Of a stretch of 64,000 nt of DNA, positions 23,587-44,276 are shown piece after piece (the first letter of the stretch is position 1; each line of letters starts with the position of its first letter). A model generated the notes under the pieces. The model was given only the letters and a program-made list of their open reading frames with translations. It was not told the origin of the DNA and searched no databases. The DNA comes from Vicia villosa. Lineage: Eukaryota; Streptophyta; Magnoliopsida; Fabales; Fabaceae. The stretch covers positions 22,385,915 through 22,449,914 of the forward strand of contig NC_081186.1 of NCBI RefSeq assembly GCF_029867415.1, written 5' to 3'. A program made the position numbers and the translations under genes.

Positions 23587-24304
23587 TAATTATAATTAAA
23601 TATCAACAACAATCAAATCTTATTAAATGGTCTAAGATAAGAATGGACTTACCCCGAATGTAACTTTTACTAACTCCTGTAAATTTTATTATTGAAACTC
23701 ACTATTTTCACGGGTCACTATCACCACAATATCTTTTTTATTTTATTCAACAAAATATTTGTACATATTTATAGTTATAATATAAGTGATATTTGTAATA
23801 TTTCACTTTCAACGATGATGTTTCGCATTAACATTTCTAAGTATATTCCTAAAAATCATTAAAATATATGTGCTCATTTCGTTTATACTATTGTTAGCTG
23901 AAGATTTCGTTGAACAAATATATGTGCTTCGAAGGAGTGTATGATCGAAGGCAAGGTGGTTACTGATGACCATCTCTGAGAAATATAAAATGGCTACTGA
24001 TGGCCATGTTTCGATAGCAAGAAACGTCTAAGTTTTTTATGAAGGTGATGGCTACTGAAAGCTATTGGAAGGACATATCCTCGAAGACTTAGACAAAATT
24101 TATAAATTGCTTAAGTATTATTATTTAGCGTGTTTGTTAGTAAGTGTTTATTAACATACTGCCACGCGTCGAAGATGGACTCAGGCGGGAAGATTTGAAA
24201 TTCGAAGATAGTTGCGTAACTGCTTATTCACAGATGTCATCGCTGGAAGTTCTTATGAGAAACGTGGCAGCGGATTAGCGTAGGGCCGTTATGGTCGAAA
24301 CTAG

Positions 24305-24313
24305 TATAAATAG
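24305..24313 (+). promoter_or_regulatory. TATA box of element D LTR promoter
   Basis: TATAAATAG within 'actagtataaataggag'; the same box is at 38998-39006 in the 3' LTR. A start site about 30 bp downstream would place the VNTR in the transcript. Confidence 0.7.
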
Positions 24314-24530
24314 GAGTTTTTATGATAGAATTCCGGGTGTTCATTTTGTACAAATCACTCACATATTTACTCAAGTATCAAGCGTTAACGAGAACGAGTT
24401 CGCTGAGAAAATGTACGTATGACACCACCATCTTAATACATGAGTATTATCTTTTATTGCTTTTCGTTTTCGAATATCTTTAAATTCTTGCATTCTATTT
24501 ACTTCTTGTTATTTACATTACTGTATCTTT

Positions 24531-24642
24531 ACTTTCATGTTATTTACTTTCATGTTATTTACTTTCATGTTATTTACTTTCATGTTATTTACTTTCATGT
24601 TATTTACTTTCATGTTATTTACTTTCATGTTATTTACTTTCA
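24531..24642 (+). repeat. 15-bp VNTR in element D LTR
   Basis: Seven tandem copies of 'tttcatgttatttac' here and six in the 3' LTR (about 39228-39325), the last of which has one substitution. Copy-number difference between two otherwise near-identical LTRs shows slippage since insertion or during reverse transcription. Confidence 0.92.
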
Positions 24643-24951
24643 AGATCTTTAACAGTTTTATGTTTTAAGATTCTTTACATTTAAACAGAATTGCATGTTA
24701 CGTTATCTGCGTTGTTTACATTTTAAAGTCATAATCACATATAATCAAGTCATCACTAAAAGTGTATGTTTTCAATCGAATAACATTTGTCGAAGACAAA
24801 GAATCATGAACATGGTTCTAAAGAATATTGATAACAATCTAATTGACTATGTGTCCTAGGATCAATCTAGTCGATCCTGCGAGTAACCAAATCATATTTA
24901 TTATAGTTTGGAGGACTAGCGGTTGTTTACCGGAAATCACCGTAAACAAAT

Positions 24952-24970
24952 TGGCACGCCCAGTGGGACC
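24952..24970 (+). promoter_or_regulatory. Element D primer binding site
   Basis: TGGCACGCCCAGTGGGACC begins 3 nt after the LTR end, starts with the required TGG, and is the only such match there. I did not identify the tRNA. Confidence 0.8.
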
Positions 24971-25031
24971 GTGTCGAACGGATTGTTTTAATCAATTGCT
25001 TTGTTTTGTCTAGACAATATCAAGACCTTGT

Positions 25032-28000
25032 ATGAACCTTAGGAACGGTAAATTAACAAACAGTGCACAACCGGTTCCCAAACGAAGGTACAACAAGAAA
25101 ATGGCTGTTACAGCCAGTGCAGGGGGTGATCAAGATCCCTCACAAGGCACAGGATCAGGAGCGGCAAATTCGAATTCCACTCAAGGAACAAGGGATACAA
25201 CGGGTCCAAATGGATCGAGACCTGCAGATAATTCCCAGTCGGTGCCTGAAAATAATACAGGACTTTCAGGGACTTTGCCAGTTTCAGTGTCAACAACTGC
25301 ACCTTCGACCACGAGTGCAGAGGAAGTATTACCGTTTCCCTCAACAAATGCTGCGAATAACTTGTCTAGTCAAGGCACGAATTCAACTTTCGAATGGAGG
25401 CCAAATCCTCCATACGGGATGCCATTTCCTTTTGGATCAGGCGTACGAGGGGCCGGACCTACTTATGTCCCAACTAATAATGCGACATTTTCACCAAATG
25501 TGGGATCTGCGAGTCGAAGTACACACAACGTTGGTTTTTCTACCCAGGTGCCTCATTATACCACAAACAGCCAAGCAGCATTTCGACAAGAAATGGATGC
25601 AAGCAACCATGATATGCTAGGGGCTTTAGCCAAAGAATTGACTTCAATCTTTACCCCATTGTTGACAAACATTACTTGCACAAATAGGGAAAATGTAGAA
25701 ACTTTCCAAAAGATGTCATCTCAAATGAATCGGATGGCGGAGTTCATGGGTGTAACACAACCAAAAAGGAAAGATAAACAGCCCGCATACCAAGAGGGAA
25801 TGCCCGTTTTAGAACGTATACAAGATGAGGGCCCATCATCGAGACCAACCATCCGAGATATAAACTCCTTGCGGAGGACGAATTGGACGGAAGAAATTCC
25901 AGTAATTAATTTAGAGACTTCAAGTCAAAGAACCGTCCCCGTTCGACAAGAAACGGAGGAAGAACAACCCAGAGTAAGAGTTGTAGGTAGAAATGAACAT
26001 CCAGATGGGGTTGTTCAAAGAGTCAGAAGGGAAAATCTGGCCACAGAAAATAACTTGACTGCTATGATAGAAAGGGTGATGGCCAATAATGGCCTAAGTA
26101 CTGGACTCAGACGTCCAAATTATACATCCCCTATATCAGACTATATTATGCAGACAGAATTACCTAGGGGCACTAAGGTACCCAAATTTACAAAATTTTC
26201 AGGCGAAACTAACGAATCGACAGTGGAACACATTGCTAGGTATCTAACAGAAGCAGGGGACTTGGCAGGAAACGAGGACTTGGTGATCAAGTATTTCCCT
26301 AGTTCGCTGACAAAGAATGCCTTTATCTGGTTTACTACTTTGCCACCCAATTCGATAGATGCGTGGGCATACCTAGAAAGATTGTTCCATGAGCAATTTT
26401 ACATGGGTCAAACTAAGATAAGTTTGAAGGAATTGGCCAGTGTTAAGAGGAAATTCACGGAGACTATTGATGATTATTTGAATAGGTTCCGTCTGTTGAA
26501 ATCTAGGTGCTTTACGACAGTTCCTGAGCACGAACTTGTCGAAATGGCTGCAGGTGGTCTAGATTACTCAATAAGAAAGAAATTAGATACCCAATACCTT
26601 AGGGACATGGCCCAGTTGGCAGATAGAGTTCGACAGGTCGAACGCTTGAAAGCAGAAAAGGCTAGGGCTAACAAAAGTCATAAGAAGGAAAGGATAGCGT
26701 ACGTCGAAGCCGAAGACGCTGATGATGAGTCTTGCAATGACTCATACAGCCTGGAGGAAGTCGAAATAGACTTAGCAGAATTAAAAGAGGCACCACCTTA
26801 TGCCTGCAAATTGTTAAATCCTGCAAATGGAAAGAACCCTGTAGAAAATGATAAGAATGATAGGTTTCCTAAGAAAACTTATACATTTGATATTACTAAG
26901 TGTGATGAAATATTTGATCTATTAGTAAAAGATGGCCAAATGATACTACCTCCTAATTCCAAAATTCCTCCGTTGGAACAACGGAAGAAAAGAGGTTTCT
27001 GTAAATATCATGGGTTTTTAGGCCATAAAACTTCACAATGTTTTCTTTTCAGGGATCTAATTCAAAATGCTATCAATGATGGAAGGTTGAAATTTGCTGA
27101 CAAGACCAAGAGTCACATGAGGGTCGATACCAATCCCCTAAACATTGCTGATGCTAGCCTCTATGAGGTAGAAGATATCAACATGGTGGAAGTATCGGAG
27201 ATCGAAGTGGCGGAAACTAAGGCAATGCTCAACGGAAAGCAGGCTACTGAAAGCCTAAATGATGAAATAATCTTCAATACTGAGATTGAAGAAGCTTCCC
27301 AAACAGAGATGACTGAAGCACCAAAAGAAGAGAGCAATGAAGCCACTGAAGACCTCAGGATAAAACTCCAGAAAATCCAAATCTCTGAAGTTGCTCCAGC
27401 GGTGGTCAACATGGTTAGCGCCAGACACCCAACATCTGAGTTTGGCGAACTAGAGACACGGCTGACAAGGCAGAATGGGGGTATTAAAGTTCCTCTAAGA
27501 GCTGAAAGCCTCAAAGACTACCTATGGAATTGCCATGAGAGAAATGGTGGAAAACAATGGATGTGCCCAAGGTGTTCGATCATGCTGAATCGAAGAATCG
27601 AAGCCAATTTCGAAAGGGCTCGACGTGAAAGATGGGAACACCCAGGGAGAGAACCAAATCCTTTACTACAAGTGTACCCAAGGATGGATGAAAGCTTATT
27701 AGGATTTTTGATCAGATGCCACAAAGGGAACTCTGAAGTTGCACTCTGCCCCAGATGTGGGGCAGCCTATGATGAGATGCTAGCACGATCATTTGAACGT
27801 GTGCACTGCTCCATGAATCAAGAAACTCAAGGGCTACGTCCTGACTTGTATGGTTTCGATGTATGGACTCCAACGAAGAGACCGGATAGTCCACACCCTA
27901 GAGTTCGAAGGGTAACGTTCAAAATCCCTGCAGATCCACCTAGGGATAGATGGGTACAAGCCGATGCAAGAACCAACAAACGGCGTAGTTGGGACCAAGG

Positions 28001-29168
28001 AGGAAGAACCGCAATGGCATATAGGAGACAATTTCAAAGGCCAAATCGAGAGACATATCGATTGGAGAACTATAAGGGAAAAAACCCTATGTCTCGGTCC
28101 CAATGGAGGAGGCACCAGAGGATGAAAAAGGCCCAGAAGGAATATAGACCAAGAGAAACTGGAGAAACTAGCAGCAACCAAGTCCCATACCAGGGAGCAA
28201 AGTCAAACAAACCTCCGGTGGAACGTGCATTGTTCGAAGCTGAAAAGCTCTTGGATGAAGAAGATAAGATGCGGTCAAATTCCTGGAACGAAGAGGACAG
28301 AATGACAAATGATTTTGATTCTGATGGAGTCTCGTCTATAAATTTAAATTGCAATGTTGTGTCCGTACTCCCTCACGAGTTTAACCAGGAAACTGAGGTA
28401 GAAGACTGTGAGGAGGCTGATATCGAAGAAATGGCAAAACACAGACCTGTGTGTTACTATGTGCTAAATAATGGTGCAGTCGAAGAGCAGAATGCTTTCT
28501 TCGAGAGGCCTGATGAGGGTATGAGAAATCATTTGAAACCACTCTATATTAGGGCTAAGATTGAGAATGTTGGCATCAATAAAGTCCTAGTTGATGGGGG
28601 AGCAGCAGTAAATTTGATGCCCCAGTATATGATAAAGAGAATTGGCATGTTCGATACGGACATAAGACCACATAACATGGTCCTGTCTAACTATGAGGGT
28701 AAGATAGGACAAACACTGGGAGTTGTTCAAGTCAATTTGACAGTAGGCTCAGTTACCAGACCCACTATGTTCATGGTTATACCAGCAAAAGCAAACTATA
28801 ACCTGTTGCTCGGAAGGGAATGGATTCATGGGGTAGCAGCTGTACCCTCAACAATGCATCAAAGGGTGACAATCTGGAGAGAAGATGGCATAGTAGAAAA
28901 CATCGAAGGTGATCAGAGTTACTATATGGCTGAAGTTAACCAGGTAAATAAATCCAACTTCGATAGGAATCTGGCAAATATAGGACCTTGTCATACTGCA
29001 GAAGAGATGTACACCCCAAATAAGAATGCATTGTATTATCTTACTTTGCACCCAAACGGATTCCAATGGGATAGAGAGATCATGGATGGTCCAACGGATA
29101 CAGCACCTTTAGAAGGTCATGCAGCAATACGGCCAACAGGCTGGGACGATGACATTAATCATGTCTGA
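25032..29168 (+). CDS. gag-pro: Element D gag-protease
   Basis: A 1378-residue polyprotein. A low-complexity Ser/Thr/Asn-rich N-terminus (1-190) is followed by the retrotransposon gag core (about 365-550; FTKFSGETNESTVEHIARYL, LNRFRLLKSRCF), a CHHC knuckle CKYHGFLGHKTSQC (about 657-670), an acidic linker, and two tandem copies of a small Cys module (about 823-865 and 885-925; each C-H then CPRC). A basic region precedes the aspartic protease with VLVDGGAAVNLMP near residue 1187 and LLLGREWIHG. The first ATG after the PBS was chosen (25032). Its TGA at 29166 overlaps the likely pol ATG at 29161, so protease is in the gag frame and pol is in the +1 frame. The frame is fully open. Confidence 0.95.
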   Translation: MNLRNGKLTNSAQPVPKRRYNKKMAVTASAGGDQDPSQGTGSGAANSNSTQGTRDTTGPNGSRPADNSQSVPENNTGLSGTLPVSVSTTAPSTTSAEEVLPFPSTNAANNLSSQGTNSTFEWRPNPPYGMPFPFGSGVRGAGPTYVPTNNATFSPNVGSASRSTHNVGFSTQVPHYTTNSQAAFRQEMDASNHDMLGALAKELTSIFTPLLTNITCTNRENVETFQKMSSQMNRMAEFMGVTQPKRKDKQPAYQEGMPVLERIQDEGPSSRPTIRDINSLRRTNWTEEIPVINLETSSQRTVPVRQETEEEQPRVRVVGRNEHPDGVVQRVRRENLATENNLTAMIERVMANNGLSTGLRRPNYTSPISDYIMQTELPRGTKVPKFTKFSGETNESTVEHIARYLTEAGDLAGNEDLVIKYFPSSLTKNAFIWFTTLPPNSIDAWAYLERLFHEQFYMGQTKISLKELASVKRKFTETIDDYLNRFRLLKSRCFTTVPEHELVEMAAGGLDYSIRKKLDTQYLRDMAQLADRVRQVERLKAEKARANKSHKKERIAYVEAEDADDESCNDSYSLEEVEIDLAELKEAPPYACKLLNPANGKNPVENDKNDRFPKKTYTFDITKCDEIFDLLVKDGQMILPPNSKIPPLEQRKKRGFCKYHGFLGHKTSQCFLFRDLIQNAINDGRLKFADKTKSHMRVDTNPLNIADASLYEVEDINMVEVSEIEVAETKAMLNGKQATESLNDEIIFNTEIEEASQTEMTEAPKEESNEATEDLRIKLQKIQISEVAPAVVNMVSARHPTSEFGELETRLTRQNGGIKVPLRAESLKDYLWNCHERNGGKQWMCPRCSIMLNRRIEANFERARRERWEHPGREPNPLLQVYPRMDESLLGFLIRCHKGNSEVALCPRCGAAYDEMLARSFERVHCSMNQETQGLRPDLYGFDVWTPTKRPDSPHPRVRRVTFKIPADPPRDRWVQADARTNKRRSWDQGGRTAMAYRRQFQRPNRETYRLENYKGKNPMSRSQWRRHQRMKKAQKEYRPRETGETSSNQVPYQGAKSNKPPVERALFEAEKLLDEEDKMRSNSWNEEDRMTNDFDSDGVSSINLNCNVVSVLPHEFNQETEVEDCEEADIEEMAKHRPVCYYVLNNGAVEEQNAFFERPDEGMRNHLKPLYIRAKIENVGINKVLVDGGAAVNLMPQYMIKRIGMFDTDIRPHNMVLSNYEGKIGQTLGVVQVNLTVGSVTRPTMFMVIPAKANYNLLLGREWIHGVAAVPSTMHQRVTIWREDGIVENIEGDQSYYMAEVNQVNKSNFDRNLANIGPCHTAEEMYTPNKNALYYLTLHPNGFQWDREIMDGPTDTAPLEGHAAIRPTGWDDDINHV

Positions 29169-32100
29169 GTCTTCATTCTTCGAAAAGATTTCGGCCTACG
29201 TGGCCGAGAACAAACAGAAGGCGGCTCTCGAGGCCGAATTAGCAGATGTAAAGGTAGATACCATCCAAATCAAAGAAGAGATAGCAGAATTGGAGGTGCA
29301 TACAGATTTCGAACGCTCCAAAGATACGATCCTAGACGAAGAGATTATGGACGAAGGATCAAACCAAAGATTAGATGCAATATACGACGAAGAACCTTTA
29401 GGGTTCGAAAAAGACCCAATGGCTTCTAATATAAAGATGTTAGCCCAAGATCCACTCGAAGAAGTAAACCTCGGAGACAGGGATCAAAAAAGGATAACAT
29501 ATATCAGCGCGAAATTAGAGCCAGAACTAAAAGCAACGGTCATCAAAATGCTGAAAGAAAATAGAGATTGCTTTGCTTGGGATTATGATGAGATGCCTGG
29601 TCTAGGAAGGGATCTAGTCGAATTGAAGCTTCCAATAAAAGAAGGGAAGAAACCTGTGAAGCAAACTCCTAGAAGATTCGCGCCAGAGATCCATTCGAAG
29701 ATTAAAGCAGAGGTCGAAAGGCTTTTACGTTGCAAGTTTATCCAAACTACAAGGTATGTCGAATGGATTGCCAATATAGTACCTGTAATTAAAAAGAATG
29801 GCTCTTTACGAGTATGCATAGACTTTCGTGATCTTAATGCAGCCACTCCTAAAGACGAATATCCCATGCCTGTAGCAGAAATGCTGGTAGACTCAGCCGC
29901 AGGTTTTGAGTATCTAAGTATGTTGGATGGATACTCAGGATATAATCAGATCTTTATTGCAGAAGATGATGTATCCAAGACAGCGTTTCGTTGCCCAGGG
30001 GCAATAGGCACTTACGAATGGGTTGTAATGCCTTTTGGTTTAAAAAATGCTGGGGCAACTTACCAAAGAGCAATGAACTCTATATTCCATGACTTTATAG
30101 AAACATTCATGCAAGTATATATAGACGACATTGTGGTAAAATCTACTTCGGGAATGAGTCATCTCGATCATTTAAGCCAATCATTCGAAAGAATGAGGAA
30201 ACATGGGTTGAAGATGAACCCCCTTAAATGTGCTTTCTTTGTACAAGCAGGAGATTTCTTGGGTTTCGTAGTCCATAAAAAGGGAATAGAAATTAACCAG
30301 AACAAGACAAAAGCCATCATGAAAACCAAATCTCCATCCACGAAGAAAGAGTTACAATCACTGTTGGGAAAGATAAATTTTTTAAGAAGATTTATCTCTA
30401 ACTTGAGTGGACGCACGCAAGCCTTCTCGCCTTTACTACGGCTTAAGCAAGGAAAGTTCGAATGGCGTGCTGAACATCAAGAAGCTTTCGATCAGATAAA
30501 GCAATACTTGACTTGTCCACCAATCTTATCTCCCCCAAACGGGAAGAAACACATGCGCCTGTACATTTCAGCATCAGACAAAACAATAGGCAGCATGCTG
30601 GCACAAGAAGATGAAAATGGCATCGAAAGAGCCATTTACTACTTAAGTAGAGTACTCAATGATGCAGAGACTAGATATACTGCTATAGAAAAACTCTGCC
30701 TTTGTTTGTATTTCTCTTGTATTAAACTTAAGTATTATATAAAGCCAGTTGATGTTTACGTTTCGTCTCATTGTGATGTTATTAAGCATATGTTATCCAA
30801 GCCAATATTACATAGTCGAATTGGCAAGTGGGCTTTAGCCCTAACGGAATATTCGCTAATATTCCAACCTCTCAAGGCAATGAAAGGCCAAATTGTGTCA
30901 GACTTCATTGTCGATCACGCAGTGGTTGAGAATCATCAGCATTACGTGGACCTAAAACCTTGGAAGTTGTACTTCGATGGGTCGACACATAGAGAAGGTT
31001 CTGGAGTTGGAGTGTTGATAATTTCTCCTGATGGAATTCCAACAAAGCTCAAGTACAAACTCGAAGGACCATTATGCTCCAACAATGAAGCTGAGTACGA
31101 AGCGTTAATCGCCGGACTTGAGGCTTTGTTAGAACTGGGGGCAACCAGAGTCGAAATTAAAGGAGACTCCGAATTGGTCATCAAACAATTAACAAAAGAA
31201 TACAAGTGCATCAAAGAGAATCTAATCATGTACTTTGTCATTGCAAATAGGCTACTCAAGAAATTCGAATATGTAGAATTGAAACACGTATCAAGGGTGA
31301 ATAACCAAGAAGCGAACGACTTGGCACAGTTGGCTTCAGGATACAAAGTATCGAAAGAAAAATTGGAAGAATTGATCGAAGTAAGAGGAAGAGCAATGTC
31401 TACTAAACTTTCTCCGAGCGATCTAGAGAATTCACAATTGGGTTATGCCAACAAAGAAGAGTTCGAAGTCCTAAATATTGACTCTTTGGCAGACACGGAT
31501 TGGAGGAGCCCAATAATCAACTATTTGAAGAATCCTTCGACGGAGACAGATAGAAAAATCAAGTATAGAGCCTTGTCATATTTTCTAATGGGGAATGAAT
31601 TGTTCAAGAAAACTCCTGAAGGGGTATTGCTGAAATGCTTGGGTGAAGCAGAAGCATACTTGGCTCTATCAAACGTACACAGTGGGGCATGTGGTGCACA
31701 TCAAGCAGGACATAAGATGAAATGGCTTTTGTTTCGTTATGGGATGTATTGGCCTTCAATGTTGAAAGATTGCATAGAATTTGCCAAGGGGTGCCAAGAA
31801 TGCCAAGAACACGCAGGTATACAACATGCTCCAGCAAATGAACTCAGTACAATAGTGAAACCTTGGCCTTTCAGAGGATGGGCTTTAGATTTAATTGGAG
31901 AAATTCACCCCAAATCATCCAGAGGTCAAAGGTTCGGAATCCCAGAAAGCATAACAACTGATCAGGGATCAGTCTTCACTGGACGAAAAATGCAGGACTT
32001 TGCCAAGGAAATAGGATTCAAGTTGCTAACATCCACACCTTATTATGCTCAAGCAAATGGACAAGTCGAAGCAGCAAATAAAATTATAATTGGTCTTATT

Positions 32101-32658
32101 AAGAAGCATGTGGGGAAGAAACCCAAGAATTGGCATAAGACTTTGGATCAAGCACTTTGGGCTTGTCGAACATCTCCAAAAGAAGCTACAAATACAACTC
32201 CTTTCCAGTTGACGTTTGGACATGATGCGGTACTACCAATCGAAATATGTTTGCAGTCAGTAAGAATACAAAGACAAGCAGACATTTCTCCCAACGTTTA
32301 CTGGGAGTTAATGATGAATGAGTTGGTAGATCTAGACGAAGACAGGCTTCGAGCATTGGAAATGATTAAAAGACAGAAAGAAAGGGTATCCAGAGCATAC
32401 AATAAAAAGGTGAAAGGTAAAACTTTTGTTAATAATGATTTAGTCTGGAAAGTTATTTTACCTATAGACCGAAAAAATCAGGCGCTTGGTAAATGGTCCC
32501 CACATTGGGAAGGACCTTTTCGAATCTTAAAAACATTTTCGAACAATGCTTATGAAATCGAAGAATTAGCAGAAGATCGTAGGATCTTAAGAGTAAATGG
32601 GAAGTATTTGAAGAAATATAAGCCAAGCATGTTCGAAGTTAAGATTGCAAAAACGTAG
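29161..32658 (+). CDS. pol: Element D pol: RT, RNase H, second RNase H, integrase with internal deletion
   Basis: Counted from the ATG at 29161 (overlapping the gag stop) it has 1165 residues; the frame is open from 29119. An N-terminal coiled coil is followed by RT (about 160-340; RVCIDFRDLNAATPKDEYPM, DGYSGYNQIFIAEDD, catalytic YIDDIVVKS near 320). Next come a first RNase H (YISASDKTIGSMLAQ), a second RNase H (LYFDGSTHREGSGVGVLI, NNEAEYEALIAGL, KGDSELVIKQL) and integrase. The HHCC zinc region is present (HSGACGAHQAGH...CQECQEH), as are the three acidic residues (WALDLIGEI, ITTDQGSVFTG, NGQVEAANK). However, the first two are only 24 residues apart, whereas this lineage usually has about 60. 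The 'ATDYFTKWVEA' core is absent at SSRGQ|RFGIPES. This is an in-frame deletion and should disable the integrase. A chromodomain was not seen. Confidence 0.93.
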   Translation: MSESSFFEKISAYVAENKQKAALEAELADVKVDTIQIKEEIAELEVHTDFERSKDTILDEEIMDEGSNQRLDAIYDEEPLGFEKDPMASNIKMLAQDPLEEVNLGDRDQKRITYISAKLEPELKATVIKMLKENRDCFAWDYDEMPGLGRDLVELKLPIKEGKKPVKQTPRRFAPEIHSKIKAEVERLLRCKFIQTTRYVEWIANIVPVIKKNGSLRVCIDFRDLNAATPKDEYPMPVAEMLVDSAAGFEYLSMLDGYSGYNQIFIAEDDVSKTAFRCPGAIGTYEWVVMPFGLKNAGATYQRAMNSIFHDFIETFMQVYIDDIVVKSTSGMSHLDHLSQSFERMRKHGLKMNPLKCAFFVQAGDFLGFVVHKKGIEINQNKTKAIMKTKSPSTKKELQSLLGKINFLRRFISNLSGRTQAFSPLLRLKQGKFEWRAEHQEAFDQIKQYLTCPPILSPPNGKKHMRLYISASDKTIGSMLAQEDENGIERAIYYLSRVLNDAETRYTAIEKLCLCLYFSCIKLKYYIKPVDVYVSSHCDVIKHMLSKPILHSRIGKWALALTEYSLIFQPLKAMKGQIVSDFIVDHAVVENHQHYVDLKPWKLYFDGSTHREGSGVGVLIISPDGIPTKLKYKLEGPLCSNNEAEYEALIAGLEALLELGATRVEIKGDSELVIKQLTKEYKCIKENLIMYFVIANRLLKKFEYVELKHVSRVNNQEANDLAQLASGYKVSKEKLEELIEVRGRAMSTKLSPSDLENSQLGYANKEEFEVLNIDSLADTDWRSPIINYLKNPSTETDRKIKYRALSYFLMGNELFKKTPEGVLLKCLGEAEAYLALSNVHSGACGAHQAGHKMKWLLFRYGMYWPSMLKDCIEFAKGCQECQEHAGIQHAPANELSTIVKPWPFRGWALDLIGEIHPKSSRGQRFGIPESITTDQGSVFTGRKMQDFAKEIGFKLLTSTPYYAQANGQVEAANKIIIGLIKKHVGKKPKNWHKTLDQALWACRTSPKEATNTTPFQLTFGHDAVLPIEICLQSVRIQRQADISPNVYWELMMNELVDLDEDRLRALEMIKRQKERVSRAYNKKVKGKTFVNNDLVWKVILPIDRKNQALGKWSPHWEGPFRILKTFSNNAYEIEELAEDRRILRVNGKYLKKYKPSMFEVKIAKT

Positions 32659-32908: not shown

Positions 32909-33643
32909 TTAGTTAATCCTTTGGTTTAAACCCTCCAAGGACAACACGGGTGAAGCTTCAGCTTCGAACATGTCGATGGCTCCGCCCTCACGCATGCGTC
33001 TCACTACACCCTTCCTTTGAAAGATGAAAGTAAGAAGTCTTCCGTATGGGAGGCAAGTCACGTTCCTCTGCCGTTCAGTACCAATAGAGACAGCTTTCAC
33101 GAGACCTTTGAATATCATCAAAGGAATGTTGATCTTCTTCCCTCGAAGACCACAGAAGATGAACTCCAAATCTTCAACCAAGATGTCGTTTTCGTTGATC
33201 CTCCGAGGCTGGAAGTTGCCCACGAGCATCTGATGCCAGATCCTAACAACTCTGGCACTAAAAGGATCATTTTCCATGACGGACCTCAGCATGAGATGCG
33301 TGGTCATGTTAAAGCCATCGTCATCAAAGCGTTCCCCAGAGTTACTACACCTGATTAAGTGAGCAATGGTGGCAGGAGTAATACTGAAACGTGCATGCCG
33401 AATCTCAGAATCTATGGTGGTTCTACCTTCAGGATCTATGCGTACAGTAGCATTCATCCAAAACTCAGCCAACATGTTTGGATAAACAGCACCTTCCAAG
33501 ACTTCCTCAAAGTAGAAGTCCAACTCCTGATTGACAAACAAAGTTTCAAGAGTGACAAAGTGGCGAAGGAGTTCATCCTCAGAAAGTCTGAACTCGCTCC
33601 GGATAAGGGTTTTGATTTCATTGAAAGAGAGGATTTCGGCCAT
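32909..33643 (-). CDS. Antisense ORF of element D, putative plant transposon-type protein
   Basis: A 244-residue protein on the strand opposite gag-pol, starting MAEILSFNEIKTLIRSEF. It carries YPNMLAEFWMNATVRIDPEG, then FSITPATIAHLIRCSNSGE and IWHQMLVGNFQPR. The order 'YPN.V.EFW.N' / 'ITP..IA..I' / 'W...L.GN' is what I associate with the 'putative plant transposon protein' domain found in repeat-derived plant ORFs; this is from memory. A TATA-like TATATAA lies at 33752-33758 on the minus strand, 110 bp upstream of the ATG, so it probably has its own promoter. No stop or frameshift. Function unknown. It lies downstream of the spliced antisense gene in the same orientation. Confidence 0.75.
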   Translation of the reverse strand: MAEILSFNEIKTLIRSEFRLSEDELLRHFVTLETLFVNQELDFYFEEVLEGAVYPNMLAEFWMNATVRIDPEGRTTIDSEIRHARFSITPATIAHLIRCSNSGERFDDDGFNMTTHLMLRSVMENDPFSARVVRIWHQMLVGNFQPRRINENDILVEDLEFIFCGLRGKKINIPLMIFKGLVKAVSIGTERQRNVTCLPYGRLLTFIFQRKGVVRRMREGGAIDMFEAEASPVLSLEGLNQRIN

Positions 33644-33747
33644 TATGAAAAAAGAGAAGAAGGTTTTGGAGGAAGAAAAATGGTTTCTCTTTTCTGAGTT
33701 TAGGAAAGAAGAGAATGAGTGAATGAAGAAAATAAGGGTGATATTGG

Positions 33748-33760
33748 ACCTTTATATAGA
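33748..33760 (-). promoter_or_regulatory. TATA-like box for the small antisense gene
   Basis: The minus strand reads TCTATATAAAGG, about 110 bp upstream of the ATG at 33643. A transcript starting about 30 bp downstream would have a leader of roughly 80 nt. Confidence 0.55.
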
Positions 33761-34212: not shown

Positions 34213-37200
34213 CTAGTTGAAACCCTCAGGGAGGTTATTCTTGATCTTTGAATATTGTGACTCCCAAGAAGTCATACGGAGTTCAATCACCGATCGTTGT
34301 TTCTTCAACCTTTCGATCTCAGGAATCAATTTTTGAGCAGCCTCGAAATGTGTGATCCCTGATTGTACTATTTCGACCAACTCCTTTTGGTTGGATTGTT
34401 GGATGGTTGCCTGGCTGCGTTCAGCTTCCTTGATTTTCTCCTCAAGTGCCTTTATCTCTTGTTTCCAGATCTTGATATTTTTTGCATGATCATCAAAGGC
34501 CTTCTGGTCTTCTGATTGCTTAAGTTTGAGGACCTCGCCTCGTTGGGTTGCATCTACTGCAGAATTCCATGAAGAATCACGGGAGGCCATTGCTTCAGAT
34601 AACTCTCTTTCGATACTTCGTTTTCGAAGGATATCAGCTTGAAGTTGCTCAACCAGAGAGCCTAACAGAACAAGTACGTCTGAGACTGTTGTGGAGACTT
34701 GAAGTAAATCTACTTTTTTCAAAAGTTGATTTAAACCATGACTCTTAAGAGGATCCCGAATGAGGAGATCCACAAGATTGACATCGAAGAACCGCTCTTT
34801 GATTTGTCGAAGCAGGCTAGAAGTGTCTTCTTGGTTGCCAGACCCCACAGTCGCAACTGGAATAGCGTCAGGACTTGGAGACGAAGAAGTATCCACATTC
34901 ATGATAATCTTCAAGAAACTAAGAGGATCAGCATGCTTTAATTGTTCTAGCTCCGAAGGCGTAGGGGCAGGCATTGAAGTGGTCCCAGGATCAGCTTTTG
35001 TGTCAAGAGTCGAAGCTTCTTGAAAGTTTTGCTTTTCTAGTTTGGAAGTTTCCTCCATAACATCTGATTCAGACACAGTGTCGTCACTATGATGAGGATG
35101 CAGATTCACATTGTCACTACCTGAGAGGGCGTGATCTTCGCCTTCCAAACTTTTGTCTTGATGAGTAGCTGGAGACTCATCAGTAGAATGACTTTCTTCA
35201 ACGGGTTCATCGGGCAGCATAGTGTTGATGGGCTGAGCATCTTCGACCACGGGTGAAAGAGCAGGAGCTTTGTCTCGAGAAGTATCTGTGTCAGATAAAG
35301 CAGAGTTAGTCATAAGAATAAACCTGTAACAAGTTTGTCAACGAAGCTAAAGATTATTATTACCATAGAGTTTGGGAACATCAATGGTAAGACCAGGATC
35401 TTTGAAACCTGAAGTAGCAGTGCCAGCATCATCCTGCAATAACAAGGTAAAAAAGTTAATCCCATTATTTAGATAAAGTCACAAGTTAATATGCGAAAAA
35501 ACCTGAAAGACCTTGGTTTGGATATTATCTGGACTTGAATTGTGACTTTCGACAACAAGTATGTTGCTAGTTGTTTTCAAAGGGGAATCTTCAGAGGACG
35601 CTTTATCAGTAGGAGAAGCAGTTTTGGAGGGACTTGCTCCCTTTCCCTTTTTCGAAGGAGTAGCAGATTTTTGTCTTTTCCTAAGTCCTTGTCTAGTGCA
35701 AGGAGGAGATTTATCCTCATCATCTGAAGCAGCGGACGAAGAAACTTTCCGTTTCGGACCAGTTGGGGGCTTCGAACTCTGAAAAGACAGATGATAAGCA
35801 AAGGGACTATTGATTACAGATTATATAAGATTAAGAACGCAAAAGGTGCGTACCGTAGGCTTTTTATCAGGATTGAGAGAGCCACTTTCACTGGGTTTGT
35901 CGCTTTGGGATGTCCCAGGATTCTTTTGGGCAGGAGTCTCTTTGATCTTCCTCCTATGGGCAACAGCTGTAGTCGAAACTGAAATTAGTGTACCAGCCAA
36001 AAAGGAAAAGTCAGTCGAAAAGATTGTCTGAATCCAAACCTTCAGGTATTGGAGTCAAGACACGAACGTGTTCGAGATCTATATGGAGATGTCCTTTGAA
36101 AGTATCCAAGGTATGCTTAGTCGGAACCACCCGTTCAGCGCGTTTTTTACTACTGTTTTGAAGATCTTTTAAAACGTTGCCACACACAAACCAATCTGGA
36201 AAAGGGGGGCTCAAAGCCACACCAAAATCCGCGCTTGGCAGTGGAGGAAATTTTGGAGGATTAAGTTTGAAAGCCACTTCATAACGTAGTTCTGGTCGAA
36301 CATACGAGGGCAATTTCAACTTATCCAGTTTGGCGGAAAACTTTTCGCGCAAAGTGATTGCAGCCTCACGAACGGTCCGACTAAGATCATCAGGCCTATA
36401 GATAGTTTCAAAAAAATTTTGGAAAGCTTGTATTTCTTTAATATGAGTTGTAGTACCTTTACGAAAAGTCTCCTGCACATCAGCAAAAGCTGCAGTTAGT
36501 TCCTGCGTCAAACTATCAGCATCAAAGATTTGAGAAGTATAATAATTCGTCCACCATTGATGGAAGTCTGGTGTACAGTAAAAGGAAGGTTCGAAAGGAA
36601 TAGGGGAAAGGTTGGTGACGCCAGCATATCTGTTAACTTTTGTTTCACATTCTTCTTCTGACAAGTATAAGGTGTGGAAGCACATATGACTCCTTTTCTC
36701 ATATAAGCATTTTGGTTTTATTTGGACCAATCCAAACTGTCGTGAAACCAAATTTGGTTGATAGCACACAAGAATGCATTGCCCTTTCGATGGTCGAAGA
36801 CGGTGGAGGAACAACCTTGGAGTCAGAAAAGATTCCCAAATTTCCATAAGCTCAGTTTGTTGATCCTGAGATGTTGGTGGGAATTTCTGAGTAAACCATT
36901 CAGGACCCTTGGTTCTATGTACAAACGGAGCCATAGACGGATCGAATTGACGACGCTGGGCAAACATCATCATATACGCTAAGAAGTATTCTTGAAGTTT
37001 CCCAGGCTTTTCTTTTGGAGTCAGGTAAGCCAACCTAGTTCCTTCAATAGTTCGATTCCTGATTTTGTCATTTTCCTCCTTGACTTTCCCTCGAAACGGA
37101 AGATGAGCTTCGAACGTAGCATTTAGCCACAGTTGCAAAAGCCAGAAAGGTCCAGCATAAAGTAAGGTACCAGATTGGTAATTCTTGGTAAGGTTTGCAG

Positions 37201-38128
37201 CTTCGCTAAGGTTTTCATAAAGAAATCCCAGAAGTAGTTGGCCAAGATTGAGCTTTTTTCCATTATGCAATTGATTAGCCATGCAAAGATATCTCTTTGC
37301 AACTTGTATGGATCTTGAGCAGAAAGCACATCGCGAAAGCCATAGCGCCAAGAAGGCAATATGTTCGTCATCAGAGACTTCTTCGTTCGCGGTAACATGA
37401 TGTTGTTGGATAAACGCAGTATAAGTAACTGTCGAATTATTAAAGCCAATTGTGTCATCATCCATCTCAGTGGGATCGAAGTCTTCCCCAGTTGGTCGAA
37501 GTCCTGTAATCGCAGCTACATCGAAGAGAGTAGGGGTGACCATTCCACATGGGAGGTGGAAAGTGTTGTGGGAAGCATCCCAGAAATGGACCGCTGCTAC
37601 TAGCATGGGTTGGTTATATGTTAAGCCTGTTTTTGATAGTTGGATCAAATCGTAGATTCCTAACGATTTCCAGTCAGATTCTTTCTTTTTCTCTACTTTT
37701 TCTAACCAGGCAAAGTACAAGTCAGGATCTTTGGCTAAAGGGAGTGACCTAAACACTTTCACAAAGTTGGTCATATAATTTAACCTAATTTTTGGCAAAG
37801 CCAAAGGGGCTACGGTTGAAGTTTCTTCAACATTAGCAGATTCTCCTGAAGGAGAGCAACCCTCTTCATTTGTGTTAGCTTTGCTCACTAATGGCCTAGT
37901 CTTATAATAAGCAGGGAAGAACCTACTTAGGGTTTGGTTATCTTCACCCGGCAATGGACCCATAAAAGCAAAAGATTTTCCAGAAAGTTCAAAGGGTATG
38001 ATTACCTGGGAAGCGTAGATAGCGCGAACTTCTTCAACGTTAGGGTTTGGAATGTGTTCGTGTTCACCAGACCGTGTGGTGGATTGGAGCTTTAGAGCAG
38101 GTTGAAGAACATTGGAAGATGAAGCCAT
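34213..38128 (-). CDS. Five-exon antisense gene of element D: plant mobile domain plus coiled coil
   Basis: Read on the minus strand, five exons join in phase: 38128-36040, 35978-35854, 35778-35503, 35433-35364 and 35285-34213. All four introns have GT...AG ends (61, 75, 69 and 78 nt). The joined length is 3633 nt, i.e. 1210 codons plus stop. Alternative acceptors exist, e.g. 12 nt later in intron 1, also in phase. Exon 1 (about 696 residues) carries a plant mobile domain-like region: FHLPCGMVTPTLFDVAAITG, LAYLTPKEKPGKLQEYFLAY. Exons 2-3 encode a basic Ser/Lys/Pro-rich linker resembling a nuclear-localisation region (GPKRKVSSS, GLRKRQK). Exon 5 is acidic, then a long coiled coil (KIWKQEIKALEEKIKEAERS). 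A TATA-like TTTAAATA lies 115 bp upstream of the ATG. Extra, sometimes antisense, ORFs are known in Tat elements. The exon model is my inference from frame and splice sites; there is no transcript evidence. Confidence 0.8.
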
Positions 38129-38240: not shown

Positions 38241-38253
38241 AAGTATTTAAAGG
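38241..38253 (-). promoter_or_regulatory. TATA-like box for the five-exon antisense gene
   Basis: The minus strand reads CCTTTAAATACTT, 113-125 bp upstream of the ATG at 38128. It is outside the LTR, so antisense expression need not depend on the LTR promoter. Confidence 0.5.
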
Positions 38254-38583: not shown

Positions 38584-39627
38584 TGTTAGCTGAAGATTTC
38601 GTTGAACAAATATATGTGCTTCGAAGGAGTGTATGATCGAAGGCAAGGTGGTTACTGATGACCATCTCTGAGAAATATAAAATGGCTACTGATGGCCATG
38701 TTTCGATAGCAAGAAACGTCTAAGTTTTTTATGAAGGTGATGGCTACTGAAAGCTATTGGAAGGACATATCCTCGAAGACTTAGACAAAATTTATAAATT
38801 TGCTTAAGTATTATTATTTAGCGTGTTTGTTAGTAAGTGTTTATTAACATACTGCCACGCGTCGAAGATGGACTCAGGCGGGAAGATTTGAAATTCGAAG
38901 ATAGTTGCGTAACTGCTTATTCACAGATGTCATCGCTGGAAGTTCTTATGAGAAACGTGGCAGCGGATTAGCGTAGGGCCGTTATGGTCGAAACTAGTAT
39001 AAATAGGAGTTTTTTATGATAGAATTCCGGGTGTTCATTTTGTACAAATCACTCACATATTTACTCAAGTATCAAGCGTTAACGAGAACGAGTTCGCTGA
39101 GAAAATGTACGTATGACACCACCATCTTAATACATGAGTATTATCTTTTATTGCTTTTCGTTTTCGAATATCTTTAAATTCTTGCATTCTATTTACTTCT
39201 TGTTATTTACATTACTGTATCTTTACTTTCATGTTATTTACTTTCATGTTATTTACTTTCATGTTATTTACTTTCATGTTATTTACTTTCATGTTATTTA
39301 CTTTCATATTATTTACTTTCAAGATCTTTAACAGTTTTATGTTTTAAGATTCTTTACATTTAAACAGAATTGCATGTTACGTTATCTGCGTTGTTTACAT
39401 TTTAAAGTCATAATCACATATAATCAAGTCATCACTAAAAGTGTATGTTTTCAATCGAATAACATTTGTCGAAGACAACGAATCATGAACATGGTTCTAA
39501 AGAATATTGATAACAATCTAATTGACTATGTGTCCTAGGATCAATCTAGTCGATCCTGCGAGTAACCAAATCATATTTATTATAGTTTGGAGGACTAGCG
39601 GTTGTTTACCGGAAATCACCGTAAACA
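38584..39627 (+). repeat. Element D 3' LTR
   Basis: 1044 bp; the same ends as the 5' LTR. Noted differences: six instead of seven VNTR units, one extra T near 38799 and one near 39013, a substitution in the last VNTR unit (39308) and a substitution near 39479. Confidence 0.95.
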
Positions 39628-40270
39628 GTGAGACATTAACTTTTTTAGTTCTGCGTTGTTGTTCTTCTTATACCAACCTTTCACAAATTATGTTTACTGT
39701 TTTTGTAATCTATAGAAAGTTTTCTTTGATTAACAACACTGGAATGTTATTCCAAAAAATGACAACAATTTGGGTTCAAGATTTGTGTTCTTAAATAATC
39801 ATATAAATGAATATTTATTTTATTTATCTACTTTTTATACCATAAACAAATACAAGCAATATCTACCATTTGATCTTCCTCAAGATTCAATGAAACAAAG
39901 ATCCAACATTTGATCTTCACTGATAGTGATGATGATGAATTAGATTCAAAATTTGTTATATATTTTTATGTTAATATTTTTTGTAAACAATGTAATATTC
40001 CGAGAGGTATGTGATGCTAGTTTTGAAAATATAAAAATGTTGTTGCTGAGGATCAAACCAACAATCATTTCAATTATCTACTCGATTAATCAAAATACAC
40101 CTCCAAAACCCAAACTTTCACCATTAAGTCACACACGCACACAAATCCTTCTCGTTAAATCACAAGTTCCATGTTCCATTGGAGAATCCATCCATACATT
40201 GAGTTGTTGATGGGTTGTTAATACACTTACCAAATTTTTTTGCAATTCCACTTAATATTAAATTTGTAAT
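39628..40270. other. Intergenic DNA, nothing recognised
   Basis: Short AT-rich stretch between element D and the TIR element. No ORF with motifs and no repeat. Confidence 0.5.
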
Positions 40271-43010: not shown

Positions 43011-43382
43011 CTAGCTAATACTTATATTTTTGTAAACCGGTTCTTGATTTACTATATTTTCTATTACTTTTTATTTTATTTTTATGTTTGAAGTTAAAAA
43101 TGATTTAAGAAAAAAACATAAATTTGCAAGTAATTTACAATTAAAATTAATTGAATAAAAAAATAAAAAAATCACATTTTCAATTTTACAATAAATATAA
43201 AAATTATTTTTAAAAACAATTAAATACTTTCTTGATTCAATTTTACAATTTTTTGAAACAAGTTTGTAGAAAAAAAGTATGTATAGAATTTTAATATATA
43301 TTTTTTTCATTTAAAAAAAGAATTGTCCATAAAAAAAAATTCCAACTATGCGTTTCCTTTGCTATCTAGCTTCGTCTTTTCC

Positions 43383-43617
43383 TCTCCGATCGATCTCGCG
43401 TGCATCTCAAATCGACGTCGTATTCATCTCCGCTCCACTTCGTATTCAGCTCCGATCCACTTCGTCTGCATCTCCAATCGACGTCGTATGCATCTCCGAT
43501 CGACCTCGTTTGCATCTCCGATCCACTTCGTCTGCATCTCCAATCGACGTCGTATGCATCTCCGATCGACCTCGTTTGCATCTCCGATCGACCTCGTGTG
43601 CATCTCCGATCGATGTC
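43383..43617. repeat. 22-bp minisatellite
   Basis: About ten tandem units of the type 'ctcgtttgcatctccgatcgac', with variant arms (cgtatgcatctccaatcgac). Because 22 is not a multiple of 3 and stops are rare in the unit, several frames on both strands are open across it. These are not taken as genes. Confidence 0.92.
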
Positions 43618-44276
43618 TCCGTCTGCAATCAACTTTGTCTCATTCTCAATTCGATCTTGTCCTAGTCATATTGATCTATTATCCTCTCTCCATTTCTAAT
43701 CGATCTTCACATTCTCTCATCCTTGCTCCTATTTTCATATGAAACCCTAATCTAGCTGTTTAACATCTATAATTCATATTTTTTCTATTTCAGGTTCTTT
43801 CAGTTTTGATTTTTTTTTATCCAGTTGAAGAAAAGTAATTGAAGCTTCAAGAGTCACGAAATGCTCTAAGAGAAGTTGTGAAGCTGCTTGAACAAATCAT
43901 TAGCAAGTTCCAAACTTAGAGTGCGAGCTTCAAAAAAGGTAACATGGAATTTGAAATCTAATAATGTAAATTGTTTATGTTGTATGTTTCTGTTACGTTG
44001 ATGACAGGAAAAATGAAATAACTGATTAGAGCCGCTAATAATGTGTATGATATTGATGATACTATTGATAATCCATTCATTGTCTGACACGATATCTCTA
44101 ATGATAATTTGAGGAAATGAAATTAATTGAATAGAATTGCTTGTGTTGGTGTCGATGTTGTCTTGAGTCTTGAAAGCATACACACTTTCAATTTAAAGTG
44201 TCGGTGCTCTATAAGATGACAATAAAAGGTAATTGACCAATAAATTGAAAGAATTGTATGTTTAAACATTGTGCAG

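What the first reader, a model, noticed from the sequence alone, without database searches (positions are those of the whole stretch)
34213..38128. A phase-perfect, five-exon antisense gene inside a young retrotransposon
Seen in the sequence: on the strand opposite gag-pol, five open segments connect through four short GT...AG introns (61, 75, 69, 78 nt), and every junction preserves frame. The joined CDS is 3633 nt with a single terminal stop, giving a 1210-residue protein: plant-mobile-domain-like N-terminus, basic Ser/Lys linker and acidic coiled-coil C-terminus. A retroelement passes through RNA, so introns survive only if they lie antisense to the genomic transcript, exactly as here. Known: extra ORFs, some antisense, occur in Tat-type elements, and plant mobile domain proteins include silencing factors. 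Inference: the element keeps a spliceable host-like gene that may counter silencing or act in nuclear targeting.
Basis: partly seen in the sequence, partly recalled or inferred. Interest (0 to 1): 0.88.

Follow-up and report, generated by a model that had tools for sequence, protein, structure and literature searches.

The report
Antisense spliced gene in retrotransposon
A young plant jumping gene carries, on its reverse strand, a real five-exon gene kept working by natural selection, and the shape predicted for its protein has one clear match among solved structures: a protein that another jumping gene uses to switch off the plant's silencing.

Summary
ORFs at 38128-34213 (minus strand) join through GT-AG introns of 61, 75, 69 and 78 nt into 1210 codons. 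Bridging alone is only modestly unlikely (17 of 1000 shuffles do as well); comparison makes it a gene. An NCBI Vicia villosa model has the same junctions at introns 2-4 and the intron 1 acceptor. Three copies at ~72% nucleotide identity have GT-AG introns at the four positions, exon 1 dN/dS 0.11-0.14, and introns ~40% diverged. Pea, clover and soybean models share the architecture. The 15.7-kb element is a Tat-lineage Ty3/gypsy element with a second antisense gene (Transposase_32). PMD genes in Gypsy elements, antisense ORFs in this lineage and the counter-silencing idea are published. Two points I did not meet in the listings and passages seen: the selected four-intron structure, and the fold. 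The predicted PMD has one significant Foldseek match in the PDB: DNA-bound VANC21, the anti-silencing protein of VANDAL21. Most likely it is a nuclear DNA-binding factor that protects the element from silencing. Expression, splicing and DNA binding are not shown.

The parts
23892..24948 (+). 5' LTR (TG...CA, 1057 nt) with a 15-bp tandem array at 24496-24642
24952..24970 (+). primer-binding-site-like TGGCACGCCCAGTGGGACC just after the LTR; tRNA not identified
   Evidence: one exact tRNA-end pattern gave 0 matches
25014..29168 (+). gag-protease ORF (stop-to-stop)
   Evidence: PF03732 E=2e-11, PF13975 E=0.0011
29113..32658 (+). pol ORF (stop-to-stop): RT, RNase H, second RNase H (RVT_3), integrase; lacks 37 codons of the integrase core compared with siblings
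32909..33640 (-). second antisense gene, 243 aa, single exon, Transposase_32 (PF20167, E=3e-10, 40.6 bits, below the curated cut-off of 45)
   Evidence: variants in frame 0: singletons 7 N / 15 S, shared 4 N / 1 S
33749..33759 (-). TATA box CTATATAAAGG upstream of the Transposase_32 gene; identical in 20 of 21 rows (absent from the other), TATATAAAGG also in two diverged copies
34213..38128 (-). antisense PMD gene, 5 exons, 1210 aa
36040..38128 (-). exon 1 (2089 nt): plant mobile domain, residues 157-526, VANC21-like predicted fold
35979..36039 (-). intron 1, 61 nt, GT-AG
   Evidence: acceptor as in NCBI model P0131
35854..35978 (-). exon 2 (125 nt), basic linker
35779..35853 (-). intron 2, 75 nt, GT-AG
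35503..35778 (-). exon 3 (276 nt), Ser/Lys-rich linker
35434..35502 (-). intron 3, 69 nt, GT-AG
35364..35433 (-). exon 4 (70 nt)
35286..35363 (-). intron 4, 78 nt, GT-AG
34213..35285 (-). exon 5 (1073 nt): acidic region and coiled-coil-like C-terminus, conserved in a pea homologue
38243..38251 (-). TATA-like TTTAAATAC, about 115 nt upstream of the PMD gene's ATG; kept in 20 of 21 rows
38584..39627 (+). 3' LTR (1044 nt) with the same 15-bp array at 39190-39321

Best explanation
This is a genuine protein-coding gene of a Tat-lineage (probably Ogre-type) Ty3/gypsy retrotransposon in Vicia villosa, placed antisense between pol and the 3' LTR. SHOWN by computation: one open spliced reading frame; purifying selection on that frame; GT-AG introns at the four positions in three copies at about 72% identity; a TATA-like element upstream kept among siblings; the same layout (PMD gene, then Transposase_32 gene, then pol on the other strand) in three of four diverged copies examined; and a predicted PMD fold whose only significant Foldseek match in the PDB is the DNA-bound domain of VANC21. 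INFERRED: the gene is transcribed from its own internal antisense promoter and spliced. Because the genomic RNA is the other strand, its introns pass through reverse transcription unspliced and are inherited. The protein enters the nucleus, binds DNA of its own family through the VANC-like PMD, perhaps repeated non-coding LTR sequence, and lowers host silencing there, as VANC21 does for VANDAL21; the basic linker and coiled-coil C-terminus would give nuclear retention and multimerisation. I put about 0.93 on the gene being real and selected, and about 0.45 on the anti-silencing function.
Against: No RNA evidence of antisense transcription or splicing. The Foldseek superposition itself is loose (TM 0.49 by target, 0.28 by query, rmsd 7.0), identity to VANC21 is 6%, and DUF1985 (VANC) is not among the hits of the window protein, nor among the 25 shown of 64 families hit by 60 PMD proteins. 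A shared fold does not show a shared function, and host PMD proteins MAIN and MAIL1 act for silencing (PMC8616336, passages). VANC21's recognition core AGTATTA occurs 2 times per LTR and 0 or 1 times in other regions, too few to judge. Bridging of the exons alone has about 2% chance probability. P0131 is a chimeric computed model, so its splice sites may not rest on reads. In one search one opposite-strand frame also gave a low ratio (0.51), as is expected if wobble positions coincide. One diverged copy (C4, L041/L043) showed neither pol nor Transposase_32 downstream. All three diverged copies fetched are decayed.
Confidence: 0.5

Rival explanations
1. Accessory replication protein: the PMD gene product acts in the element's own replication cycle, for example nuclear entry of cDNA, targeting of integration to particular chromatin, or regulation of the sense promoter, without any effect on host silencing.
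For: Antisense retroviral genes are regulatory, and Grande's antisense protein is nuclear (PMC7264820, passages). A DNA-binding fold and a basic linker fit a tether or transcription factor as well.
Against: The one solved relative by fold is an anti-silencing factor, not an integration tether. No direct test either way.
Confidence: 0.27
2. Decoy of the host PMD pathway: the element's PMD competes with MAIN/MAIL1 for PP7L or another partner and so weakens a host silencing complex, without binding element DNA itself.
For: MAIN and MAIL1 carry the same domain and act with PP7L in silencing (PMC8616336, passages). Other PMD loci are frequent in this genome (204 matches scored); that they are host-type is my reading of motifs, and some may sit in other transposons.
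Against: The fold match is to a DNA-bound domain. The ten other PMD loci fetched are far from this protein (no tblastn match at E <= 1e-5; one at 5e-4).
Confidence: 0.15
3. The antisense RNA, not the protein, matters: antisense transcription makes double-stranded RNA with the genomic RNA and tunes transposition.
For: Proposed for such elements in PMC7264820 (passage).
Against: Strong protein-level constraint: dN/dS near 0.1 in the spliced frame while introns of the same transcript diverge about 40%.
Confidence: 0.05
4. Chance open frames or annotation artefact: the five ORFs are fortuitously connectable.
For: 84 of 1000 shuffles of the middle section also bridge, 17 of 1000 as well as the real sequence.
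Against: Constrained exons and frames and intron positions at about 72% nucleotide identity, PF10536 E = 1.1e-36, pea and clover homologues of the C-terminus, same junctions in NCBI model P0131.
Confidence: 0.03

Closest known systems
PMD extra ORFs of Ogre/Tat elements and Gypsy-encoded PMD-A clades (PMC6317226: PMD in 57% of Ogre elements, passage; PMC5418596: PMD-A1/A2 exclusively Gypsy-encoded, passage; Steinbauerova 2011 not held, known only through citations)
   Same: PMD (PF10536) gene inside a Tat-lineage Ty3/gypsy element, outside gag-pol
   Different: The passages read do not describe a four-intron antisense gene, its selection or its fold; whether Steinbauerova 2011 does is unknown to me
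Antisense TRP28 ORFs of Retand elements (PMC11963269: abstract, section 11 part 1 of 2 and section 12 read)
   Same: Antisense coding region between pol and 3' LTR, conserved, suspected DNA-binding regulator
   Different: Domain is Transposase_28, not PMD; no introns are mentioned in the parts read
VANC21 of VANDAL21 (PMC5735166, PMC10398659, passages; structure 9lnj)
   Different: Encoded by VANDAL elements (DNA transposons of the MULE kind, recalled); DUF1985 not detected here; 6% identity; anti-silencing activity not tested here
MAIN / MAIL1 (host PMD-C proteins; PMC8616336 and PMC5418596 passages; PMC7156037 start of abstract in listing)
   Same: Plant mobile domain
   Different: Host genes acting in silencing; PMD-C rather than Gypsy-type
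HBZ of HTLV-1 (recalled; antisense genes of HTLV mentioned in PMC11963269 and PMC7264820)
   Same: Antisense gene of a retroelement; spliced form (recalled)
   Different: Unrelated protein and host; the HTLV antisense promoter lies in the 3' LTR (PMC7264820, passage), here the TATA-like element is internal

Membership tests
Tat-lineage Ty3/gypsy LTR retrotransposon | LTRs with gag, protease, RT, RNase H, second RNase H and integrase in gypsy order | tested here: met
   RVT_1 227-386, RNase H 451-580, RVT_3 621-740, integrase 850-978
Ogre (within Tat) | gag-pro and RT-RH-INT in two ORFs parted by an intron | tested here: inconclusive
   Two ORFs in different frames, but their stop-to-stop limits overlap by 56 nt; no splicing data
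Ogre (within Tat) | primer is tRNA-Arg | tested here: inconclusive
   PBS-like TGGCACGCCCAGTGGGACC; exact tRNA-end pattern found 0; a shorter pattern did not complete
Ogre (within Tat) | RT phylogeny within Ogre | not tested
   No reference RT set fetched
Plant mobile domain proteins (PF10536) | match above Pfam gathering score over the full profile | tested here: met
   127.2 bits against 34.9, profile 1-346 of 347
PMD-A (Gypsy-encoded clade) | encoded inside Gypsy elements and clustering with PMD-A1/A2 | tested here: inconclusive
   Inside the element; no tree with the published clades was built
VANC anti-silencing proteins | DUF1985 sequence domain | tested here: not met
   Window protein hits only PMD at E <= 10; DUF1985 not among the 25 shown of 64 families hit by 60 PMD proteins
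VANC anti-silencing proteins | VANC21 DNA-binding fold | tested here: met
VANC anti-silencing proteins | sequence-specific loss of DNA methylation of its own element | not testable with these tools
   needs expression and bisulfite data
Retand (TRP28) elements | antisense Transposase_28 ORF | tested here: not met
   No PF04195 hit at E <= 0.1 in the three antisense ORFs scanned (exon 1, exon 5, Transposase_32 ORF)

The most novel reading that the evidence does not exclude
The Gypsy-type PMD is a VANC-type DNA-binding domain: a retrotransposon and a DNA transposon have armed themselves with the same fold as sequence-specific anti-silencing factors, and host silencing proteins MAIN/MAIL1, which carry the same domain family, share that fold, so attack and defence of plant transposon silencing would be fought within one protein superfamily. 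The retrotransposon keeps its version as a spliceable antisense gene whose introns are shielded from loss in reverse transcription.
Probability: 0.33. Interest if true: 0.88.

Novelty: new variant of a known kind. Interest (0 to 1): 0.72.

Why it matters
The function of the plant mobile domain is open in the papers seen (PMC8616336 calls it a domain of unknown function, passage). A structural tie between PMD and VANC21 gives a specific, testable hypothesis: DNA binding and local anti-silencing. It would explain why so many Ogre-type elements keep this gene, offer a mechanism for the success of such elements in legume genomes, and link transposon attack proteins to host silencing proteins. The gene is also a clean natural case of introns preserved in a retroelement because they lie antisense to its genomic RNA.

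Tried and rejected
Chance connection: rejected by comparative evidence, although shuffles alone gave only about 2%. RNA-only function: disfavoured by dN/dS. Relationship of the second antisense protein (Transposase_32) to PMD: no profile similarity (hhalign probability 0.4%); its model was unusable (pLDDT 34.9), so its fold is untested. VANC21's published motif core: too few occurrences to judge. Solved relatives by sequence: with the PMD profile the best of 65 matches were proteins such as a cation channel, Huntingtin and coiled coils lying mostly in the linker and C-terminal columns, which I take as compositional; with the single sequence only bestrophin at E > 1. Viral structures: 0 matches at E <= 0.001. 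IMG/VR scan: 14 pattern matches, 0 relatives. DUF1985 in this genome: 3 matches, not compared further.

Errors and superseded steps: one search used an alignment in which copy L010 had unrelated sequence and one exon set was out of frame; one search replaced it with low-identity windows masked (for example 3101 columns of L010 and 1961 of L012). In one search the row 'exon5' starts one base out of frame and is disregarded. Results that do not favour the reading: exons 2-5 singletons ratio 0.86, Transposase_32 shared variants 4 N to 1 S, one opposite-strand frame 0.51. Loci L029-L038 were picked from the PF10536 list and turned out not to be this gene; they entered no selection count. dS against the window copy exceeds 1 and is saturated; one exon 5 value was undefined. 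The splice sites of L039-L041 were chosen by a script among GT and AG within 15-20 nt of the aligned positions (24-72 combinations a copy), so small slides are not independent evidence. The printed alignment was cut in the middle.

Selection bias: the 20 siblings come from the 40 listed places of 966 candidates, searched with the gene's last 201 bases, so they lean towards young copies with an intact 3' end; one of the 40 is the window itself and 19 others were not fetched. L039-L041 are 3 of 64 places, chosen for having no stop in the matched part, which biases towards open frames.

Literature limits: Steinbauerova 2011 and 2008 are not held, and no paper on the 9lnj structure was found. That I did not meet the PMD-VANC link or a multi-intron antisense PMD gene rests on the listings and on passages of the papers opened, not on a full reading.
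Full report
WHAT WAS CHECKED. The finding describes five minus-strand ORFs at 38128-34213 joined by four introns. Enumerating GT...AG introns of the stated lengths gives exactly one combination that yields a single ORF of 1210 codons. I tested how easily this arises by chance: with the 790-nt middle shuffled, 84 of 1000 shuffles could bridge exon 1 to exon 5 and 17 of 1000 kept as much coding sequence as the real path. The joining alone deserves only modest weight; the rest of the case is comparative.

THE ELEMENT. LTRs are 23892-24948 and 38584-39627, with 2 substitutions in 1042 aligned columns and 17 gap columns; a 15-bp tandem array is 15 nt longer in the 5' LTR. They begin TG and end CA; the flanks (ACTAT before, GTGAG after) are not a target-site duplication. 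Pfam gives gag and protease in 25014-29168 and RT, RNase H, a second RNase H (RVT_3) and integrase in 29113-32658, the layout of the Tat lineage (dual RNase H: PMC9289625, passage). Contig lengths of this genome equal those given for NCBI Vicia villosa proteins (252325240, 219312922, 174244307 and 166511264), so the host is hairy vetch. The window copy lacks 37 codons of the integrase core; 11 of 20 siblings have a pol of 3657 nt without a stop, against 3546 nt in the window copy.

THE GENE IS UNDER SELECTION. Twenty near-identical siblings were fetched (mean pairwise difference 0.8% with the window). In 12 of 20 every exon is open and all splice dinucleotides are present; 2 more have open exons but one lost acceptor; 6 of 20 have a stop or frameshift. 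Among 21 rows, variants shared by two or more copies split 26 non-synonymous to 25 synonymous with no stop, 0.42 of the expectation from the observed mutation spectrum (p = 0.0019); singletons give 0.61. The other two same-strand frames give 1.62 and 1.35 for shared variants; pol gives 0.27. Three diverged copies, 71-76% identical over their main blocks with one block at 66%, show the same more strongly. Exon 1 dN/dS is 0.106, 0.124 and 0.141 against the window copy (dS saturated) and 0.120 for the unsaturated pair L039-L040; PMD core 0.07-0.10; exons 2-3 0.13-0.31; exon 5 0.09-0.24 in the five of six pairs where defined; wrong frames 1.3 and 2.1; introns differ at 39-42% of sites from the window copy. 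GT-AG introns are present at all four positions in all three, with the intron 1 acceptor sliding in two and the intron 3 donor in all three. These particular copies are decayed: the best gene model is cut short in exon 5 of L039, L040 has lost its ATG and part of the gene, and L041 ends early.

INDEPENDENT ANNOTATION. NCBI's V. villosa protein P0131, named 'flocculation protein FLO11-like', contains exons 2-3-4-5 of this gene joined at the finding's junctions and entered at the intron 1 acceptor, twice in tandem. It lacks exon 1, is a chimeric model, and I cannot see its read support. Homologues of exon 1 reach 97% identity in V. villosa, 48% in pea (P0007) and mostly 32-45% in clover and soybean. 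The C-terminal 251 residues match pea P0007 at 1.6e-25 and pea P0011 at 4e-10, and clover and soybean models weakly (5e-8 to 5e-4), E-values for the 131 proteins at hand; these proteins carry PMD. A database search with the C-terminus alone listed only P0131; that search needs shared 5-residue words, so it misses relatives as distant as pea.

SURROUNDINGS. A second antisense gene, 33640-32909, encodes 243 aa with a Transposase_32 match (E = 3e-10, below Pfam's cut-off; 10 of 11 aligned members match) and has ten homologues at 57-97% identity. A TATA box, CTATATAAAGG, is unchanged in 20 of 21 rows (absent from one) and occurs in two diverged copies, L042 and L045. The PMD gene has TTTAAATAC about 115 nt before its ATG, kept in 20 of 21 rows. 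The region thus reads as two antisense transcription units. Of four diverged copies whose downstream flank was read, three show PMD gene, Transposase_32 and then pol on the opposite strand; the fourth (L043) showed neither.

WHAT IS KNOWN. PMD occurs in 57% of Ogre elements (PMC6317226, passage). PMD-A clades are Gypsy-encoded, and the direction of capture is open (PMC5418596, passage). Antisense ORFs are a regular feature of Retand elements, with TRP28 (PMC11963269, abstract and sections), and of Grande and others (PMC7264820, passages). A counter-silencing role for TE-encoded PMD has been proposed (PMC8616336, passage). In the listings and passages seen I met neither a four-intron antisense PMD gene with selection evidence nor the PMD-VANC21 link, but key papers are not held, so priority is uncertain.

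VERDICT. It is a variant of a known kind: an Ogre-type PMD extra gene, here antisense, with four introns and under constraint. The best mechanism is a VANC-like DNA-binding, anti-silencing factor (about 0.45), with replication accessory (0.27) and host-pathway decoy (0.15) as rivals. RNA, DNA binding and methylation effects remain untested.

Noticed in passing
window ~31931 (pol ORF 29113-32658): The window copy's integrase core lacks 37 codons compared with siblings, in frame, with a 4-base overlap of the flanking matches; Pfam sees only the end of the rve domain (62-101 of 102).
   Followed up: partly
window 32909-33759, minus strand: A second antisense gene (Transposase_32, 243 aa) with a textbook TATA box, singletons 7 N to 15 S among siblings, and 57-97% identical homologues; function unknown.
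   Followed up: partly
window 24496-24642 and 39190-39321: 15-bp tandem array TATTTACTTTCATGT in both LTRs with different copy numbers, the only high-scoring tandem repeat of the element.
   Followed up: no
window 23892-24948 and 38584-39627: CTTCGA/TCGAAG occurs 7 times in each LTR (about 6.6 per kb against 2.7-3.4 per kb in the coding parts).
   Followed up: no
window 23887-23891 and 39628-39632: No target-site duplication flanks the element although its LTRs differ by only 2 substitutions; possibly an inter-element recombinant.
   Followed up: no
G000:C3:131-134 Mb: A dense cluster of other PMD loci with long open frames, including most of the highest PF10536 scores listed for this genome.
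   Followed up: no
window 43287-43742: Three overlapping plus-strand frames of 109-151 codons made of a repeated Ser/Ile/Arg-rich unit, a coding-like tandem repeat outside the element.
   Followed up: no
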